From Polytrichum commune (lineage: Eukaryota; Streptophyta; Polytrichopsida; Polytrichales; Polytrichaceae), in the NCBI GenBank assembly GCA_950295325.1, contig OX485805.1, forward strand, positions 19,889,501 to 19,953,500: a DNA stretch of 64,000 nucleotides, read 5' to 3'. Of this stretch, positions 48,345 through 59,300 are shown piece by piece (the first letter of the stretch is position 1; each line of letters starts with the position of its first letter). Both the position numbers and the translations under genes were made by a program. The notes under the pieces are model-generated. The model made no database searches. It saw nothing but the letters and a program-made list of their open reading frames with translations, and was not told where the DNA came from.

Positions 48345-49202
48345 ATGGTACTTTGCCAGAAGCAACTTCTGTTTAACAACAACTTATGTATATGGATGCG
48401 CCCACCACAAGACATACCCCTATGCCACATTCATATCAATGAATGCAACCCAGATAATGACATTGAATGCACACAACACACCATTCAAAGCCAATATGGC
48501 GCATCACACATCTATGATAATGATGGACGCCACCTAATTACCATTCCTGAACTAAGGCTACAATGGCTATGGGAACAATACCAAAATGCATTAAACAAAC
48601 CACACAACTTAGAACCCCCCATACAATCCTTTGAAAAAGAAGTGGCATGGTTGTATCAAAGATACAAATATAGAATGCCCAAAAACGACCCCCTCAAACT
48701 CTCACAATACACCCTCCCAAATGCCATCATAGAAAACATCATTGACTCCTTCCACATCACCCATTCCTACTTCTCATCACCAATCACATGTCCTACTACA
48801 TTGAAACAATTCTCCTCCCCATTTTCTAGGGACAAGGTATTCGGGTCAATAGGCACAGCATTCCAACATAAATGGGCAGGGGTGGGATATGCCCACCCGC
48901 ACACAAAAAAAGACACTCAACAAGCCCTACATTGGGCTAGACTTGCCGTCAAACATAACCCAGACACAATCACAATACTCATAACAACTGACCCAAACTA
49001 GTACCACAACCTCAACCCCCATGAAGGCCCTTTCCCAGATTCTCACGTTATCTCACATTTCAAAGCAGACACCATTGCATATGATGAACCCACAATACCC
49101 CCGGAATTACAAACTAACCCACGAACAGAAAATCATGACATCCGCATATTATGTATACACCACAAACACACGTCCCCCGGATCATGTGAATATGCGAATC
49201 GT
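48345..49202 (+). pseudogene. Retroelement ORF, N-terminal part with in-frame stop
   Basis: The frame runs from 48345 to a TAG at 48999-49001 and continues in the same frame without other stops into the RNase H ORF. The codons around it read TTDPN-stop-YHNLNPHEGP, so the stop may replace a Trp codon. The segment ending SPFSRDKVFGSIGTAF-HKWAG-GYAHPH...WARLAV...ITILITTDPN loosely resembles the DNA N6-adenine methyltransferase-like domain of some retroelements (position of FGS, W-G, NPP-like and DPxWY-like motifs). That comparison is weak inference. What is certain is a conserved-looking, uninterrupted reading frame of about 285 codons apart from one stop. Confidence 0.5.
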
Positions 49203-50876
49203 ATGGACACTATTAGCACTACCCTCCAAATACCCACATCATTTCACACACCGGCACCGCCTACACCTATAAACACCTTAGTAAATAGAAGCAAGAAATG
49301 GTCTCAACTTATATACCCGCCCCCCCATCCACTTACAAACCAAACTTCTAACACTCCCATATACACGAATCAAGACATATGCCTACCCCTCAAATACCAC
49401 CCACAATTTTGCTATTACACGGATGGATCATTCATGCCACCCAAAGAAATAACCCGAGGGCATTGGAGAAGAGAAAAAGCAGGGTATGGTATATATAACC
49501 CTTTCAAAAACCTCAAAATCACAAAAAGACTACCCGGACTCCAAAATATACTTAGGGCAGAACTTATGGCTATACACCACACCCTCCACCTCCTCACTAC
49601 CACATACCGGAATGAACCGGCACATATCTTTACAGATTGTCTCAATGTCTTATACCTCCTGAACACGCAAACTAAACACCCAACACTACACAATAGCCAC
49701 CCGGATAAAAAGATACTAGAATCCATAGTTAAGATGTTGCAATCCCGCACACAAACCACCACACTACACAAAGTCAAAGCCCACACAAACATTCAAGGTA
49801 ACGAACAAGCCGATAAATTAACAAAATTGGGTTGTGAATTAGAACATAGAGACGCTATAGCCACACATGAGCATGCGCACCCCACACCATGCTACCTCCA
49901 AAAAGATTGGTGGCATTCAATGCAAGAAACACCAGACAAAGGCCCCATCCGACACCTTGGCAAATACATCATCAAACATGATAAAAAACACAATCTATCC
50001 ATTCTAGCAACCCAAACACATCAATTACATAAATGGCTTGATAACAAAGATATCGATAAAACATTATCAAATGACTTTTGGACCAACCCGGCTATCTCAG
50101 ACAAGCAAAAAACGTGCTTAGTAAAATTCCGAACCGGACAATACATGGGGCAAGCTAGAAAACAACTCTTTTTTGGTAGAATTGCATACCCATCCCATAC
50201 ATGTAACATTTGCAACTCATTAGAAGCGGATACATGGCTACATATACTCCTCAAGTGCAAACAACAACACATCCACGCACTAATTACAAAAAGACATAAC
50301 AAAGCAGTATGGGAAATACGCAAACTCCTTGTCTCAAATAAAATAACAAGACATTACATACTCATGAACGCAGGTACATATAATGAACTACCCCAAGACA
50401 ACACAGTACCAACATGGTTACTACCCTGCACATGTGGTACCCAAAGATGTCATTGTAACGCTAGACTCAAACCCGACATCCTATGCATTATAGGGCACCC
50501 TTACAATTCCCCACCACCAGAAGCACCCACACCAGAAATTACAATTCAATTTATAGAATTCACATACTGTAATGACAGATTCTCCACTAAAACCATAAAT
50601 CAAAAAATTACAAAATATCAACCACTCATAAATAATATCATCGCAAAGGGTTGGAACGTAGCCCCACTTATTGTATTAGCATCTGGTGCTCGAGCCACAA
50701 CTCACATCCCCTCAATGAACGAACTTGAAACAAAGCTTAAACTCCCCACATCACAAATTAGGAACACATTCAAACAACTTAACATAATTGCCATACAATA
50801 TGCACACTCAATATTAATCCACAAAAGACGAATAGAAAATAGACAACCCATCACAGACCTACAAAATCATAACTAA
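49203..50876 (+). CDS. Retroelement RNase H / zinc knuckle / nuclease-like ORF
   Basis: Open for 557 codons from ATG 49203, in frame with the segment upstream. Residues 70-210 form an RNase H with the full D-E-D-D set: D74 (YTDGS), E120 (LRAELMAI), D145 (IFTDCLN) and D204 (GNEQADKL), preceded by the HKVKAHT motif. Near residues 330-350 is a CCHC knuckle, CNICNSLEADTWLHILLKC (CX2CX9HX4C), typical of LINE C-termini. Residues about 420-520 contain KPDI (D425), IQFIEFTY (E452), KYQPL and GW-V-PLIVLASGAR, in the layout of PD-(D/E)xK nucleases, though T454 sits where a Lys is usual. The ORF is intact. The RNase H call is firm; the nuclease call is tentative. Confidence 0.8.
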   Translation: MDTISTTLQIPTSFHTPAPPTPINTLVNRSKKWSQLIYPPPHPLTNQTSNTPIYTNQDICLPLKYHPQFCYYTDGSFMPPKEITRGHWRREKAGYGIYNPFKNLKITKRLPGLQNILRAELMAIHHTLHLLTTTYRNEPAHIFTDCLNVLYLLNTQTKHPTLHNSHPDKKILESIVKMLQSRTQTTTLHKVKAHTNIQGNEQADKLTKLGCELEHRDAIATHEHAHPTPCYLQKDWWHSMQETPDKGPIRHLGKYIIKHDKKHNLSILATQTHQLHKWLDNKDIDKTLSNDFWTNPAISDKQKTCLVKFRTGQYMGQARKQLFFGRIAYPSHTCNICNSLEADTWLHILLKCKQQHIHALITKRHNKAVWEIRKLLVSNKITRHYILMNAGTYNELPQDNTVPTWLLPCTCGTQRCHCNARLKPDILCIIGHPYNSPPPEAPTPEITIQFIEFTYCNDRFSTKTINQKITKYQPLINNIIAKGWNVAPLIVLASGARATTHIPSMNELETKLKLPTSQIRNTFKQLNIIAIQYAHSILIHKRRIENRQPITDLQNHN

Positions 50877-51373
50877 AATTAGAGAGGGGTAGTGGTCAGA
50901 CCACTAGTTATTAAGTTACCACCTATAGCTCAGAAAGGCGGGGAGTAGCCGGCTGGTTGGCATAACTTTCCTGCCCATGATTAACTCACTTGCAGCACCA
51001 AGTCAAAGTGTATTGCACTAACACGCTCAGACGGATTCAACGCGAATCGAACCCAGACCGTATTAATACAACACGCATGTCCTTATCCAACCAACCTTGG
51101 AACCATGACTTGGCGACCAACAACACAATCAACCATCATTTATACTCAAACAAATACGCACGCTTCTCATCTCAAACAAAGTAGCAAAACCCACATAATT
51201 CTAAATTAAAACCCATGCATCTACACACCACCCTCCCCCCCCGGTTCAACCGGTTAAAACATCGATTACTAACATAGTGTCTACTCCCTGCAAAGGGTGA
51301 AGTAGTATTACACCCAACGCCGCTACCCTGGGGTACGGCCACGGTTGTCCTACGAACAGACACTTTATTGAGT
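50877..51373 (+). other. Retroelement 3' untranslated region
   Basis: It follows the ORF stop directly and has no ORF. The stretch 50948-50960 (tagccggctggtt) resembles a pol III A box, and 51031-51055 holds a B-box-like gattcaacgcgaatcgaacc. Both are weak and do not fold into a tRNA that I can draw. Confidence 0.4.
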
Positions 51374-54909: not shown

Positions 54910-56371
54910 TTTACTAACTTTCCGATCCCACATCCGCCAAAGAGGGTTAAGTTACAATTTTAGAACATCACGCCTTCCACAACCGAAGATGGACATTCGC
55001 ACGTTCTCGCAATGGCATCATGCAAACATGCAAACTCTCCAGGGAAGTTATAAGTTGCCAGGAAGCTCCAGACTCCCGAGCTGGATTCGGCAAGAATGAT
55101 TCGGAGTTGTCAGCGACTGACAGTGTCAGGGAGGGGTGCAAAAGATGCCATTTTAAGCAACCGTGTGAACCCTGAAAGTGGAGGAGGCTCTTTCTTTCTG
55201 CAGGAAGCCCTCAAAAGACACAGGATGGGGTACATGCACGGGCCCAAACTTTGAATTGTCATTTTCTTTCTTATTAGTTTCGTTGAGTCAGATCCTCGTC
55301 CCCAGGCTGACCGTATCTGCCTCCTGACAGAAGACATGCCAAGGAGAAGTTGTGCAAATTATGCACTCATATTGGCCGTCAGAGCTTTCGTGCAGTCGTC
55401 CACTGTGGAAGTAAGTTAGTTTTGCGGGATTCCAAGTTAGAGTCTCCCGGCCCGGCCGGCCAGTTGCAACGTCAAGGGAAAGGATGGTTAGGGGAGGGGA
55501 CCCACATTGCCCTTCCCGCCCAAGGAAAAGAGCCGGTAGGCGGTGGGTGATCGTTGTGTGGCTCTCAGGCTGACTTGGTAGCATGCATGTGTAGTGGGAG
55601 AGAGATTCAAAGTAAGGGATTCAAACCACATTGTGGTGGGTTCAATATGTCTCGAGATTCAAACGGCGAAACGGATTTGGAGCTCATGGTCGGCTATATC
55701 AGGCTTCAACATTCATTTTCAGGCAGACTCAGGTAAACTCCATCTCCCTCCCTGAAACACTCCATCTCTTCCTGTAAGGTCTCCATCCGAGTACAAGTTC
55801 ATCTCCATTCCCTCCTGTGCGGTTAGAGATGATGAAGGAGCCGCCTTTAGCACAGGATTCAGATAATGCAGGTAGCAGGAGACTAGGTTCTAATCTTGGA
55901 TCTGGCACGGAAGTTGCGGAAATGCGCCGAGTAACTCTACAGTGTTGGTTTTGAAGCCATGGAGCTTTGGGACCCATTTCAATTGACGTTTGTGGTCTTC
56001 AGATGCGAAGGCATGGCTGCAGATGGGTTTTAGAAGGTCAGATTCCGGAGGCAACAGATTACTCCCACAATGGCAATGCTGGCCCACCCACTCTACTTTA
56101 ACCTCAGCAATTGCACATGTCGATAGCTAGGGGTGGAAATCTTCAGAAGCTTCACAATTTCTTTGGGATGCAGCGCTGGTGAGCGATGAAATCGACATCT
56201 CTCAGACTTTCGAGGATTTCAACACCATCTGGGGACAATGTAGATGGGTCACAGTGTAAAATGTGTCAGTCGGTACAACACAACATTCGGTTCCTTCCAT
56301 GTTCAATGCAACCTCCATAATCGGTTATCAAGGAAACAGATTTTCGGGAAGGGGTCAGGCCTAGAGCTGCC
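54910..56371. other. Formin upstream region, possible 5' exons
   Basis: The formin frame is open upstream of 56372 only to a TAA near 56318, and the first exon lacks a signal peptide. Exons for a secretory signal and ectodomain may therefore lie here. One candidate stretch, 56233-56318, reads DGSQCKMCQSVQHNIRFLPC, Cys-rich as in plant ectodomains, but its splice to the main exon could not be phased with confidence. Promoter position is unknown. Confidence 0.4.
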
Positions 56372-59300
56372 ATGTCAATGCCGAAGGTGGGAGAGCTCTT
56401 GCATGCAAGTTATCGAGCGGCACCATTAGCAGCCCCTGCGAACTCTCCAGCCAGAGCACCTGAGATCACCTTTGCACCATCGCCAGTGGTTGTCCTGCTA
56501 GCTCCTGCACCGACGAACTTTTCATGGGTCGGCATTGTGGGCATACTCGCAGCATTTCTCGTAGTGGCAATAATAGCCCTCATATGTTTCTGGTACAAAA
56601 ATCTGACCTACAGGAAAGCTCTGCGGGAGGAAGAGGGTCTCTATGCAACAACCATTGCCATCGATTCCAACGGCAAAGGTTGCTCCGAAGATGCGAGCAA
56701 GAGAGGGGAATTGATTCTTTCAGCTTTTGAGCAAGCGCTTGTGGATAGCCCGGCACCATCCGATCACTTCAGCGACAAAGAGATTGTGAGTTGTCGAGAT
56801 GTCAAAACGCCAGTCAAGACACCCGAGAGGATGTCAGTATCGAACATGGAGCAGGAAATTCCTGTCTACACGAGGGACAGAGACATATATCTTACCGGAG
56901 GGTTCAATTGGAATCCAGGGGAAACTCTGGTGGACGAGATTTTCTACATGGGCGAAGAAGGCTCCCAGATGGGAGTTCGGTACAGCAAGCCGAGTTTGAG
57001 CAATCCTGCGGAATTTGGGCTTCTCCGAAAGGAATTAGCTTCAACCAGCAAAGGTGACAGCGACGAGGCTTGTTTGCTAGGAACGTTGAACAGATCGCAC
57101 ACAATTGAAGCACCACCATCAGGTACTAAGAAAGGACGGAGTGCATCAGAAGCCATCGACGGGTGGACAGCGTCAGGTGCGGAGAATGGCTGGAAATTGC
57201 GCACATTCTCTTTACCGACTTCGTACGTCCAGAAGACTTCCCAAGGATCTCGTGATGTGCCGAGCTTCACTGTGCCAGGGGACGAGAGGGTTGAGCTTCA
57301 GAGAAAATTCGTCAGCACCCTTACGCCTCATCCGACTTCGTTGCCATCTTCTCCAGTTCACAACTATTTTCCTTCTGCTTACAACAATCTCACTCCAAGT
57401 CCTTTCAACCCTAAACCTTCTCGTCTCTCTCACCAATCCGCTACGACATTGCTCATGCGGCCGACGTTCATTGTGCCTCCTTCCACTCCTCCTCCCCCTT
57501 TACCGCTTCCTGCTACTTTAGATGGCGCAGATGATCATGAAAAATCCATGCAGGAGCTTCGTAGAGCTGCAGGCAAATCCGAGGAGTCGAATTCCTCCAA
57601 ATGGTCTACATTTAATTATTGTCCATCTCCTCCTCCACCCCCTCTCCCTGTTCCATTTGGAGCTCCTCCTCCCAATCCCCCTCCTCCTCCTCCTCTGCCA
57701 CGCCTGTCCAACCTCGGTGTAATTGCTTCAGTACCACTTTCTCCTCCACCAAGCTCACTCAATAAAACTGAAGCACGAGAAAGCTCTTCTCCTCCTGCAA
57801 CAAGCACGCTCGACAACATTGGAGCCCTAAAAAGCGCTCCTCCCTCCCCTCGTCCTCCCCCTCCCCCTCCACCTCCGTTCTCAAAAGATAGCAGGAGCAG
57901 GCCATCTCCTCCTCCTCCACCACCACCTCACCGTGGCCCGAGACCAAAGTTGTCGCCATTAGTGCTACCAGGTAGAGCTGGCCCAGGAGGCAACACTGAA
58001 GGCTACAGAAATGGACGAAGATCACCGAAGCGTCCGCCGAAGATGAGGCCCTTACATTGGGATAAGTTGAGACCTGAGTCAAGTTCGGTGATGGTTTGGG
58101 ATAATATCACCGACTCCATGGAGTAAGTACTTTCGATTCAGCTTTAACTGCAAACTCTTTGTCAATTGAGATGAGTCTAAAGGCATTACATCATGTTCAT
58201 AGGTACCCCATATTGATGTACATATTCCTTTATCTAATTTATTCCGCAATCGCAAGCTGTGCAGTTTGTTCTGGAGCACTGAGGTTTATCCCAGTAGATT
58301 GACTTTTGCTCATGTGTTTGCACATGTTTAGTAAATGATGAGGTATCTCAGATACTGAGACTGTTCCGATTGACAAGGAAGAGATTTTGGTGATATTGAA
58401 GTGAATTTGACTTGTTCTAGACACTGATCGAAATGCACCCTGGATTGCGTTCAGGCTGGATGTAGAAATGATTGAGAATCTGTTTGGTGTGACAACAAAA
58501 GCTTCCGGGACTGATGACAGCAAGAATTCAACGTACGCCCCTTCACCCGAGAAGCACGAACTACTTGATGGAAGAAAAGCTCACAATATTGCAATCCAGC
58601 TTCGAGCCCGGGGTTTATCAAGGTTTGAGATTTGTGACGCCTTGCTGGAGGGTAAGTGACACGGCTCCAACGCACTCTTGGATTTCATGAACAGTGAGGC
58701 ATGGTAGAATGAAAAGTCGCATGTTGCACCTGCTATCTCATTCAACTTAGACATTCTGTCGTTTCAAATGGAATCCAAACTGCTCTGAATCTCATTCGCA
58801 AGGTGTGACAAGACATCTCATGTTTGTGTTTGTTTTACCAGGTGATGGCCTGAGTCTGGAGACTTTGGACGTTTTAGTGAAGATGGCTCCCACAGCTGAT
58901 GAGGCCACGAAGTTCCTAGAATATGAAGGTGACCCCTCGATGCTTGGTCCAGCAGAGCGATTCGTCCTAGGACTACTGCAGATCCCAAATGCATTTGAGC
59001 GCCTTGACGTGATGCATTATAGGGCATCATTTAGGGAAGACCTCCACCATATTCAAGACGCCATTTACATTCTGGAGGTAAGTTGCTGAATTTGCTCGTC
59101 CCCGACAGAAACCTAGGCTAATGTCGTTACACAGTTCCTGCAGGTGTTTTCTTCCAAGTGTTCTTTAGATCCTCCTCTTTTCAGTTATATATCCTCCACT
59201 CTATAGCTTCACTCTAGAGTGGAGAAGGTGACCAACTGATGTTCCTGGGGCAAAATTGTGAACAGATGGCATGCAAGGAGCTCAAGGGCAGCCGGACATT

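What the first reader, a model, noticed from the sequence alone, without database searches (positions are those of the whole stretch)
48345..50876. Retroelement ORF joining an unassigned N-terminal domain, RNase H, CCHC knuckle and a PD-(D/E)xK-like domain
One frame of 844 codons with a single stop carries a complete RNase H (D74, E120, D145, D204 counted from 49203), a CCHC knuckle, and then about 100 residues with KPDI, IEFTY and GW-V-PLIVLASGAR in the order of restriction-like nucleases. Known LINEs usually have a restriction-like endonuclease without RNase H, or an APE endonuclease with RNase H; having RNase H and a nuclease-like tail together is unusual (Dualen/RandI elements are the comparison). 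The N-terminal 285 codons are not RT and faintly recall adenine methyltransferase folds. It may be a distinct plant element lineage.
Basis: partly seen in the sequence, partly recalled or inferred. Interest (0 to 1): 0.75.

Follow-up and report, generated by a model that had tools for sequence, protein, structure and literature searches.

The report
Two-nuclease LINE carrying dead cap methyltransferase domain
The sequence is a broken copy of an abundant jumping gene, probably of a land plant, that carries two kinds of DNA-cutting domain and a captured relative of the enzyme that marks mRNA caps; the captured part is kept by selection although its catalytic motif is gone.

Summary
The frame at 48345-50876 lies in a copy (48399-51369, truncated at both ends, one TAG at 48999) of a LINE with many copies in this 408-Mb genome. 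Longer copies show the rest: ORF1, then ORF2 = 2A-like motif, APE endonuclease, reverse transcriptase, the unassigned domain, RNase H, CCHC knuckle and an R2-type restriction-like endonuclease (RH, PD, E, KX2KY). Both endonucleases plus RNase H is the published Dualen/RandI plan, so that part is known in kind. The new part is the unassigned domain: a PCIF1/CAPAM-type cap-adenosine methyltransferase fold (PF12237, E 3.9e-10 here; over cut-off at 150 of 150 scored places). Its catalytic NPPF is HP[HPY][NTS] in all 28 copies read, whereas the catalytic residues of APE, RT, RNase H and RLE are kept in nearly all; yet the fold is under purifying selection (dN/dS about 0.1 in close pairs). I infer a non-catalytic job, most simply binding the element's own capped RNA; nothing here tests cap binding. 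No listed paper describes a PCIF1 domain in a retrotransposon, but key papers are not held.

The parts
48399..51369 (+). LINE copy, truncated at both ends (97.9-98.1% identical to three longer copies, L001-L003)
48399..49415 (+). Region up to RNase H: PCIF1-type (CAPAM-like) methyltransferase with the conserved stretch before it and the linker after it; interrupted by a stop
48594..48890 (+). Pfam PF12237 (PCIF1_WW) match, E 3.9e-10
48891..48905 (+). position of the catalytic motif, AHPHT in place of the ANPPF of PCIF1
48999..49001 (+). internal stop codon (TAG) of this copy
49407..49835 (+). RNase H domain (PF00075, E 1.1e-14), D-E-D-H-D complete
50202..50258 (+). zinc knuckle C-X2-C-X9-H-X4-C
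50292..50693 (+). restriction-like endonuclease motifs: RHN, extra CXCX4CXC, PD, ExT, KX2KY, GW, GAR
50874..50876 (+). terminal stop of the frame
50877..51369 (+). 3' untranslated region; holds most of the conserved 3' RNA structure but lacks the terminal hairpin and (TTC)n tail of longer copies

Best explanation
A truncated, inactive copy of a dual-endonuclease (Dualen/RandI-type) non-LTR retrotransposon whose ORF2 has taken in a PCIF1/CAPAM-type cap-methyltransferase fold between the RT and the RNase H. Shown by sequence: the domain order; catalytic residues of APE, RT, RNase H and RLE kept in nearly all copies read; loss of the methyltransferase NPPF motif in every copy read; purifying selection on the methyltransferase fold; a conserved 3' RNA structure ending in a hairpin and a simple-repeat tail. 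From established knowledge of LINEs: ORF2p recognises the 3' structure, an endonuclease nicks the target, the RT copies the RNA from the nick (target-primed reverse transcription), RNase H removes the RNA, and the second endonuclease may cut the other strand; the 2A-like motif would release the N-terminal part during translation. Inferred and least certain: the PCIF1-like domain no longer methylates and serves as a binding module, most simply for the m7G-capped 5' end of the element's own RNA, which would favour full-length RNA or hold both RNA ends in one complex.
For: Architecture: (L005 and L006, frames of 2919 and 2924 aa: RVT_1 3.9e-27 and 1.5e-29, RNase_H 1.5e-14 and 3.6e-12, PCIF1_WW 2.9e-12 and 1.3e-10; Exo_endo_phos 1.3e-5 in L005 only). 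2A-like motifs. Catalytic residues: RNase H D/E/D/H/D kept in 27, 27, 28, 27 and 27 of 28 copies (one N, one stop, two unread); YADD in 10 of 11 loci (one YVDD); APE residues in 10 of 10 loci, one unread at the first N. RLE: PD aspartate 27 of 27, KX2KY 25 with 2 unread, matching the published LINE RLE signature in which the first K of KX2KY is catalytic (PMC5678591, passages). RT: best solved matches are three R2 proteins (up to 119.7 bits), then L1. PCIF1: 6 of 6 members scanned hit PF12237; the only PDB matches of the region's profile at E up to 1 are PCIF1 chains. Motif IV HP[HPY][NTS] in 28 of 28. dN/dS of the methyltransferase core 0.105 and 0.095, against RT 0.060 and 0.067, RNase H 0.049 and 0.058, RLE 0.097 and 0.118 and the stretch between methyltransferase and RNase H 0.305 and 0.366, in two close pairs. 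3' structure: 10 of 35 pairs with compensatory change among 7 sequences; 0 of 500 shuffles reach that, and slid versions have 1-4. L007 has the same 11 bases on both sides. PCIF1 binds the m7G cap by its helical domain and NPPF mutants are inactive (PMC10544176, passages); fly PCIF1, with F to H in NPPF, goes with absence of m6Am (PMC9479742, passages).
Against: The RLE tail gave no R2 or nuclease match in PDB with profiles of 6 or 12 rows (one spurious hit, E 0.6 and 1.1), and no structure could be predicted. PDB matches to PCIF1 are weak on their own (E 0.026, 0.072). The matched region does not include a tested cap-binding helical domain, so cap binding has no support from any test here. 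The APE of L005 is just above Pfam's cut-off (25.5 against 24.5 bits) and absent from L006's list; its PDB matches are weak (exonuclease III, E 0.008). Bombyx-type R2 chains 8gh6 and 8ibw (65.7, 61.5 bits) score below L1 (72.5 bits) in the RT search. Unnamed stretches of ORF2 (RT to methyltransferase, RNase H to RLE) are as constrained (0.066-0.137) as the methyltransferase core, so constraint alone does not show a domain function. The knuckle is one residue longer than published, the PD-to-E distance (27) longer than in R2Bm (D996 to D1009; PMC10499050, passages). In L007 eight bases lie between the duplicated 11 bases and the start of homology to L006.
Confidence: 0.72

Rival explanations
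1. An ordinary Dualen/RandI element: the methyltransferase-like domain may be ancestral to that group and merely unannotated in published members, so only the host lineage is new.
For: APE plus RLE is the described Dualen plan, with RNase H (PMC3636483; PMC4640811; passages); the methyltransferase diverges in step with RNase H-RLE (rank correlation of distances 0.83 over 24 copies); RandI families also end in simple repeats (PMC3747384, table passages).
Against: None of the passages read mentions a methyltransferase domain; but the founding Dualen paper is not held, so this is untested.
Confidence: 0.35
2. The domain is still an active methyltransferase with a changed active site (HPPN/HPHN), modifying the element's RNA cap, its cDNA or the target DNA.
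For: The His-Pro pair is invariant in 28 of 28 copies, which drift after loss of function would not be expected to keep; purifying selection on the core.
Against: N and F of NPPF are required in PCIF1 (PMC10544176, passages); all 28 copies have changed both.
Confidence: 0.12
3. The domain is only a structural spacer that holds RNase H and RLE in position relative to the RT.
For: It sits between RT and knuckle, a linker that varies between LINE clades (PMC5678591, passages); other unnamed stretches of ORF2 are as constrained as it is (0.066-0.137 against about 0.10).
Against: The stretch directly after it evolves about three times faster relative to synonymous change (0.31-0.37), so constraint is not uniform; its GYAHP patch is nearly invariant.
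Confidence: 0.25
4. The C-terminal tail is a zinc-binding nucleic-acid-binding region and not a nuclease, so the element is an APE LINE only.
For: No profile match to R2 or any nuclease in PDB; an extra CXCX4CXC cluster lies before the PD.
Against: RH, PD, E and KX2KY occur in the published order and are invariant where read, save the P of PD (24 of 27).
Confidence: 0.12

Closest known systems
Dualen/RandI non-LTR retrotransposons (known from green algae)
   Same: APE and restriction-like endonuclease in one element, RNase H, simple-repeat 3' end
   Different: A PCIF1-type fold between RT and RNase H (not mentioned in the passages read); (TTC)n or (ATCT)n tails; host unnamed, apparently a land plant
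R2-group LINEs
   Same: An R2 protein is the best PDB match of the RT; CCHC knuckle then RLE with RH, PD, KX2KY
   Different: APE and RNase H added; PD-E distance longer; a CXCX4CXC cluster added
PCIF1/CAPAM cap-adenosine N6-methyltransferase
   Same: Significant PF12237 similarity in the methyltransferase domain
   Different: No NPPF (HP[HPY][NTS] instead); part of a retrotransposon polyprotein. Fly PCIF1 also has an altered NPPF (PMC9479742, passages)
2A-containing LINEs (recalled: L1Tc and some CR1/Rex elements)
   Same: Motif of the type D-[VI]-E-x-N-P-G-P upstream of the enzymatic part
   Different: Two or three 2A-like repeats in the window's own family

Membership tests
Dualen/RandI | Apurinic-like endonuclease (APE) | tested here: met
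   Exo_endo_phos 1.3e-5 in L005, not listed for L006; N, E, D, N, S, D, H kept in 10 of 10 loci, one unread at the first N; PDB only weakly exonuclease III
Dualen/RandI | Restriction-like endonuclease | tested here: met
   By motifs only: RHN, PD, E, KX2KY; PDB profile searches negative; fold not testable
Dualen/RandI | RNase H | tested here: met
   the H of D-E-D-H-D is kept, unlike the R of archaeal-like RNase H such as that of plant L1 (PMC4640811, passages)
Dualen/RandI | RT falls in the Dualen clade by phylogeny | not testable with these tools
   No Dualen sequence held; the PDB search gives three R2 proteins, then L1, then the R2 chains 8gh6 and 8ibw, which is no phylogeny
PCIF1 family | PF12237 match over curated cut-off | tested here: met
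   (150 of 150 scored places of 697 candidates)
PCIF1 family | Catalytic NPPF | tested here: not met
   0 of 28 copies; HP[HPY][NTS]
PCIF1 family | N-terminal WW domain and cap-binding helical domain | tested here: inconclusive
   No WW domain in the Pfam lists of L005 and L006; the helical domain could not be modelled
2A peptide | D-[VI]-E-x-N-P-G-P | tested here: met
   GDIETNPGP (L005, L010), GDIEPNPGP (L008), GDIESNPGP (L011), GDIELNPGP (L001-L003), GDVEPNPGP (L004); L006 and L007 have GDIKPNPGP only; none found in L009 within the piece held; skipping activity not tested

The most novel reading that the evidence does not exclude
A non-LTR retrotransposon lineage has turned a cap methyltransferase into a catalytically silent cap reader, fused in line with RT, RNase H and two endonucleases, so that it can bind the capped 5' end of its own RNA and thereby favour full-length insertion; a solution to the 5'-truncation problem of LINEs not described in anything I saw.
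Probability: 0.25. Interest if true: 0.85.

Novelty: new variant of a known kind. Interest (0 to 1): 0.62.

Why it matters
As far as I recall, no LINE is known to carry a cap-recognising domain, and how LINEs select intact capped RNA is open. A selected but catalytically altered PCIF1 fold inside ORF2 would make that question testable and would show capture of an RNA-modifying enzyme by a mobile element. It also adds dual-endonuclease LINEs, with many nearly identical copies, to what looks like a land-plant genome. PCIF1 profile hits in such genomes may be retroelements rather than cap methyltransferases.

Tried and rejected
Relatives outside this genome: none confirmed in IMG/VR with the methyltransferase or RLE alignment (111 and 109 stretches matched a pattern), none in GTDB genomes with the RNase H-RLE alignment (34 stretches), none in 50,697 phage records with the methyltransferase region of L005. 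Host PCIF1: the ten top PF12237 places all look like element copies (nine read as L005 and L012-L019; the tenth, C5:4111068, has an RLE hit 1.2 kb on), so no separate host gene showed up, but only 150 of 697 candidates were scored and introns can hide one. RNA families: no Rfam match at gathering threshold and no tRNA in five element loci, although the 3' UTR reads GAATCGAACC. ORF1: no significant Pfam domain. RLE by PDB profile: negative. ncbifam: only weak RNase H and chance matches below cut-off. Composition bias as the cause of the PCIF1 hit: rejected by one reversed and one shuffled control. Target-site duplication of the window copy: none seen by eye; nor for L008. Paper searches: of which I saw the listed rows only; none of these is on PCIF1 in a retrotransposon, and (PCIF1, adenine methyltransferase, retrotransposon together) found 0 papers. 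Not held: 10.1101/gr.3271405, 10.1002/bies.201500104, PMC8287941.

Full report
What is in the window. The frame at 48345-50876 is real: 844 codons including the terminal stop, one internal TAG at 48999-49001. Comparison with three longer copies shows that the element part runs from 48399 to 51369 at 97.9-98.1% identity. The copy lacks everything upstream of the methyltransferase region and also the last hairpin and (TTC)n tail of the longer copies, so it is truncated at both ends. With its internal stop it cannot be active. A protein search with ORF2 of L005 (from residue 701) found no other coding stretch of the element in the window; six short DNA similarities there (about 40-260 bases) are to the outer parts of fetched loci.

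The family. A search of the window's own genome (408 Mb, 64 contigs; the seven large ones hold 406 Mb) with the 624-aa frame listed 72 matches from 71 scored of 6504 rough candidates. Fifteen of these, the window among them, match all 624 residues at 97-100% identity with no stop in that stretch. A search with the RLE tail of another subfamily scored 150 of 5361 candidates and all 150 matched. These counts are lower bounds and the candidate numbers are rough.

Full architecture. I cut 34 stretches from this genome. In L005 a single open frame of 2919 aa carries, in order: a 2A-like motif GDIETNPGP, an APE endonuclease (Exo_endo_phos, E 1.3e-5), RT (RVT_1, 3.9e-27), PCIF1_WW (2.9e-12) and RNase H (1.5e-14), then the knuckle and RLE tail. 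L006 (2924 aa) shows the same except that no APE is in its Pfam list and its 2A-like motif is GDIKPNPGP. Upstream lies an ORF1 (open frame of 747 aa in L034, overlapping the ORF2 frame by 22 bases) without a significant Pfam domain. The RT region's best solved matches are three R2 proteins (119.7 to 107.6 bits), then L1 ORF2p (72.5 bits), then the R2 chains 8gh6 and 8ibw (65.7 and 61.5 bits).

Both endonucleases. The APE residues N, E, D, N, S, D, H are kept in 10 of 10 loci, one unread at the first N; the APE region's PDB matches are weak, to exonuclease III (E 0.008). For the tail I compared with the published description of LINE RLEs: a CCHC knuckle CX2-3CX7-8HX4C, an RH at the first helix, PD-(D/E), and a catalytic K that is the first K of a KX2KY motif (PMC5678591, passages; PMC10499050, passages). 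Here the knuckle is CX2CX9HX4C, one residue longer. Of 27 copies with a tail match (26 loci and the window; L015 had none in its piece), RHN was read in 26 with 1 unread, the PD aspartate in 27 (its proline in 24), E in 26 with 1 unread, KX2KY in 25 with 2 unread. Profiles of 6 and of 12 rows found no nuclease in PDB, and structure prediction was off, so the fold is inferred from motifs.

The methyltransferase domain. The window's part upstream of the stop matches PF12237 with E 3.9e-10. PF12237 is over its cut-off at 150 of 150 scored places of 697 candidates in the genome and was found in 0 of 14 control genomes; all 6 members of a methyltransferase alignment match; one reversed and one shuffled control do not. 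The profile of the region finds only PCIF1 chains in PDB, weakly (E 0.026 and 0.072), and aligns PCIF1's ANPPF with the element's AHPHN. In 28 of 28 copies read (27 loci and the window) that site is HP followed by H, P or Y and then N, T or S. In PCIF1, mutants of the asparagine and phenylalanine of NPPF are inactive (PMC10544176, passages); fly PCIF1 with F to H goes with absence of m6Am (PMC9479742, passages). So catalysis is probably lost. By contrast RNase H, RT, APE and RLE keep their catalytic residues in nearly all copies.

Selection. In two close pairs dN/dS of the core is 0.105 (L006/L008) and 0.095 (L001/L004), near RLE (0.097, 0.118), a little above RT (0.060, 0.067) and RNase H (0.049, 0.058), and well below the stretch between methyltransferase and RNase H (0.305, 0.366). 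Against a special role: the unnamed stretches after the RT (0.097, 0.137) and between RNase H and RLE (0.112, 0.066) are just as constrained. In four more distant pairs the core gives 0.141, 0.149, 0.216 and one value that could not be computed, with synonymous sites near or past saturation. Distances in the methyltransferase follow those in RNase H-RLE (rank correlation 0.83 over 24 of 28 copies, four with too many gaps left out). The fold is thus an old, selected part of the element.

3' end and insertion. Eleven loci (L001-L011) end in one conserved module: an RNA structure, a hairpin (imperfect in L010) and (TTC)n or (ATCT)n. Among 7 sequences 10 of 35 predicted pairs show compensatory change; 0 of 500 shuffles reach this and the six slid versions have 1 to 4, though RNAalifold's own covariation term is small (-0.21) and the number of pair types is not above the shuffles (205 of 500). 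L007 has the same 11 bases on both sides, with eight further bases before the homology to L006 begins. This fits target-primed reverse transcription.

How it most likely works. Shown: domain order, catalytic residues, selection, 3' structure. From established knowledge: target-primed reverse transcription with RNase H removing the template. Inferred: the PCIF1-like domain binds rather than methylates, and the obvious ligand is the capped 5' end of the element's RNA, since PCIF1 recognises the m7G cap (PMC10544176, passages). No test here touches cap binding. The invariance of His-Pro leaves a changed catalysis possible.

Comparison and novelty. APE plus RLE in one element defines Dualen/RandI (PMC3636483 and PMC4640811, passages), and that group also has RNase H. 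By features this element belongs there; by RT phylogeny it is untested. The PCIF1-type domain is the new feature. The ten paper searches listed no report of it, but I saw only the listed rows, and the founding Dualen paper and a survey of eukaryotic adenine methylation that I looked for are not held, so prior notice cannot be excluded.

Noticed in passing
L002, L005, L006, L008, L010, 3' UTR; window 50877-51369: The 3' UTR contains GAATCGAACC or a near variant, the reverse complement of a tRNA B-box-like sequence; neither ARAGORN nor Rfam finds a tRNA in these five loci.
   Followed up: partly
L001 (and L033), L002, L003, 5' part: The window's own family has repeated 2A-like motifs: three in L001 (GDIQLNPGP, GDIELNPGP, GDIHPNPGP), two plus a damaged NPGS in L002, two in the part of L003 held, in diverged direct repeats of about 100-220 bases.
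   Followed up: partly
L034 2103-4343 (-), L031 3-2816 (-), L032 540-4469 (+), L028 2-4477 (+): ORF1 frames share, by eye, a long region (GEPI, WSG, QCLNS, PHP.SLDG and similar) without a significant Pfam domain; open frames range from 747 to 1492 aa between subfamilies.
   Followed up: partly
window 56321-58126 +: Open frame of 601 aa, proline-rich, whose end weakly matches the start of a formin FH2 domain (E 4.8e-4, below Pfam's cut-off): perhaps the first exon of a formin gene.
   Followed up: partly
window 50427-50456: Invariant CXCX4CXC cluster just before the PD of the nuclease (27 of 27 copies at all four cysteines); not in the RLE passages that I read.
   Followed up: no
L033 (upstream of L001): A 998-aa open frame, copia-like by eye at its end, lies just upstream of the 5' part of this LINE copy.
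   Followed up: no
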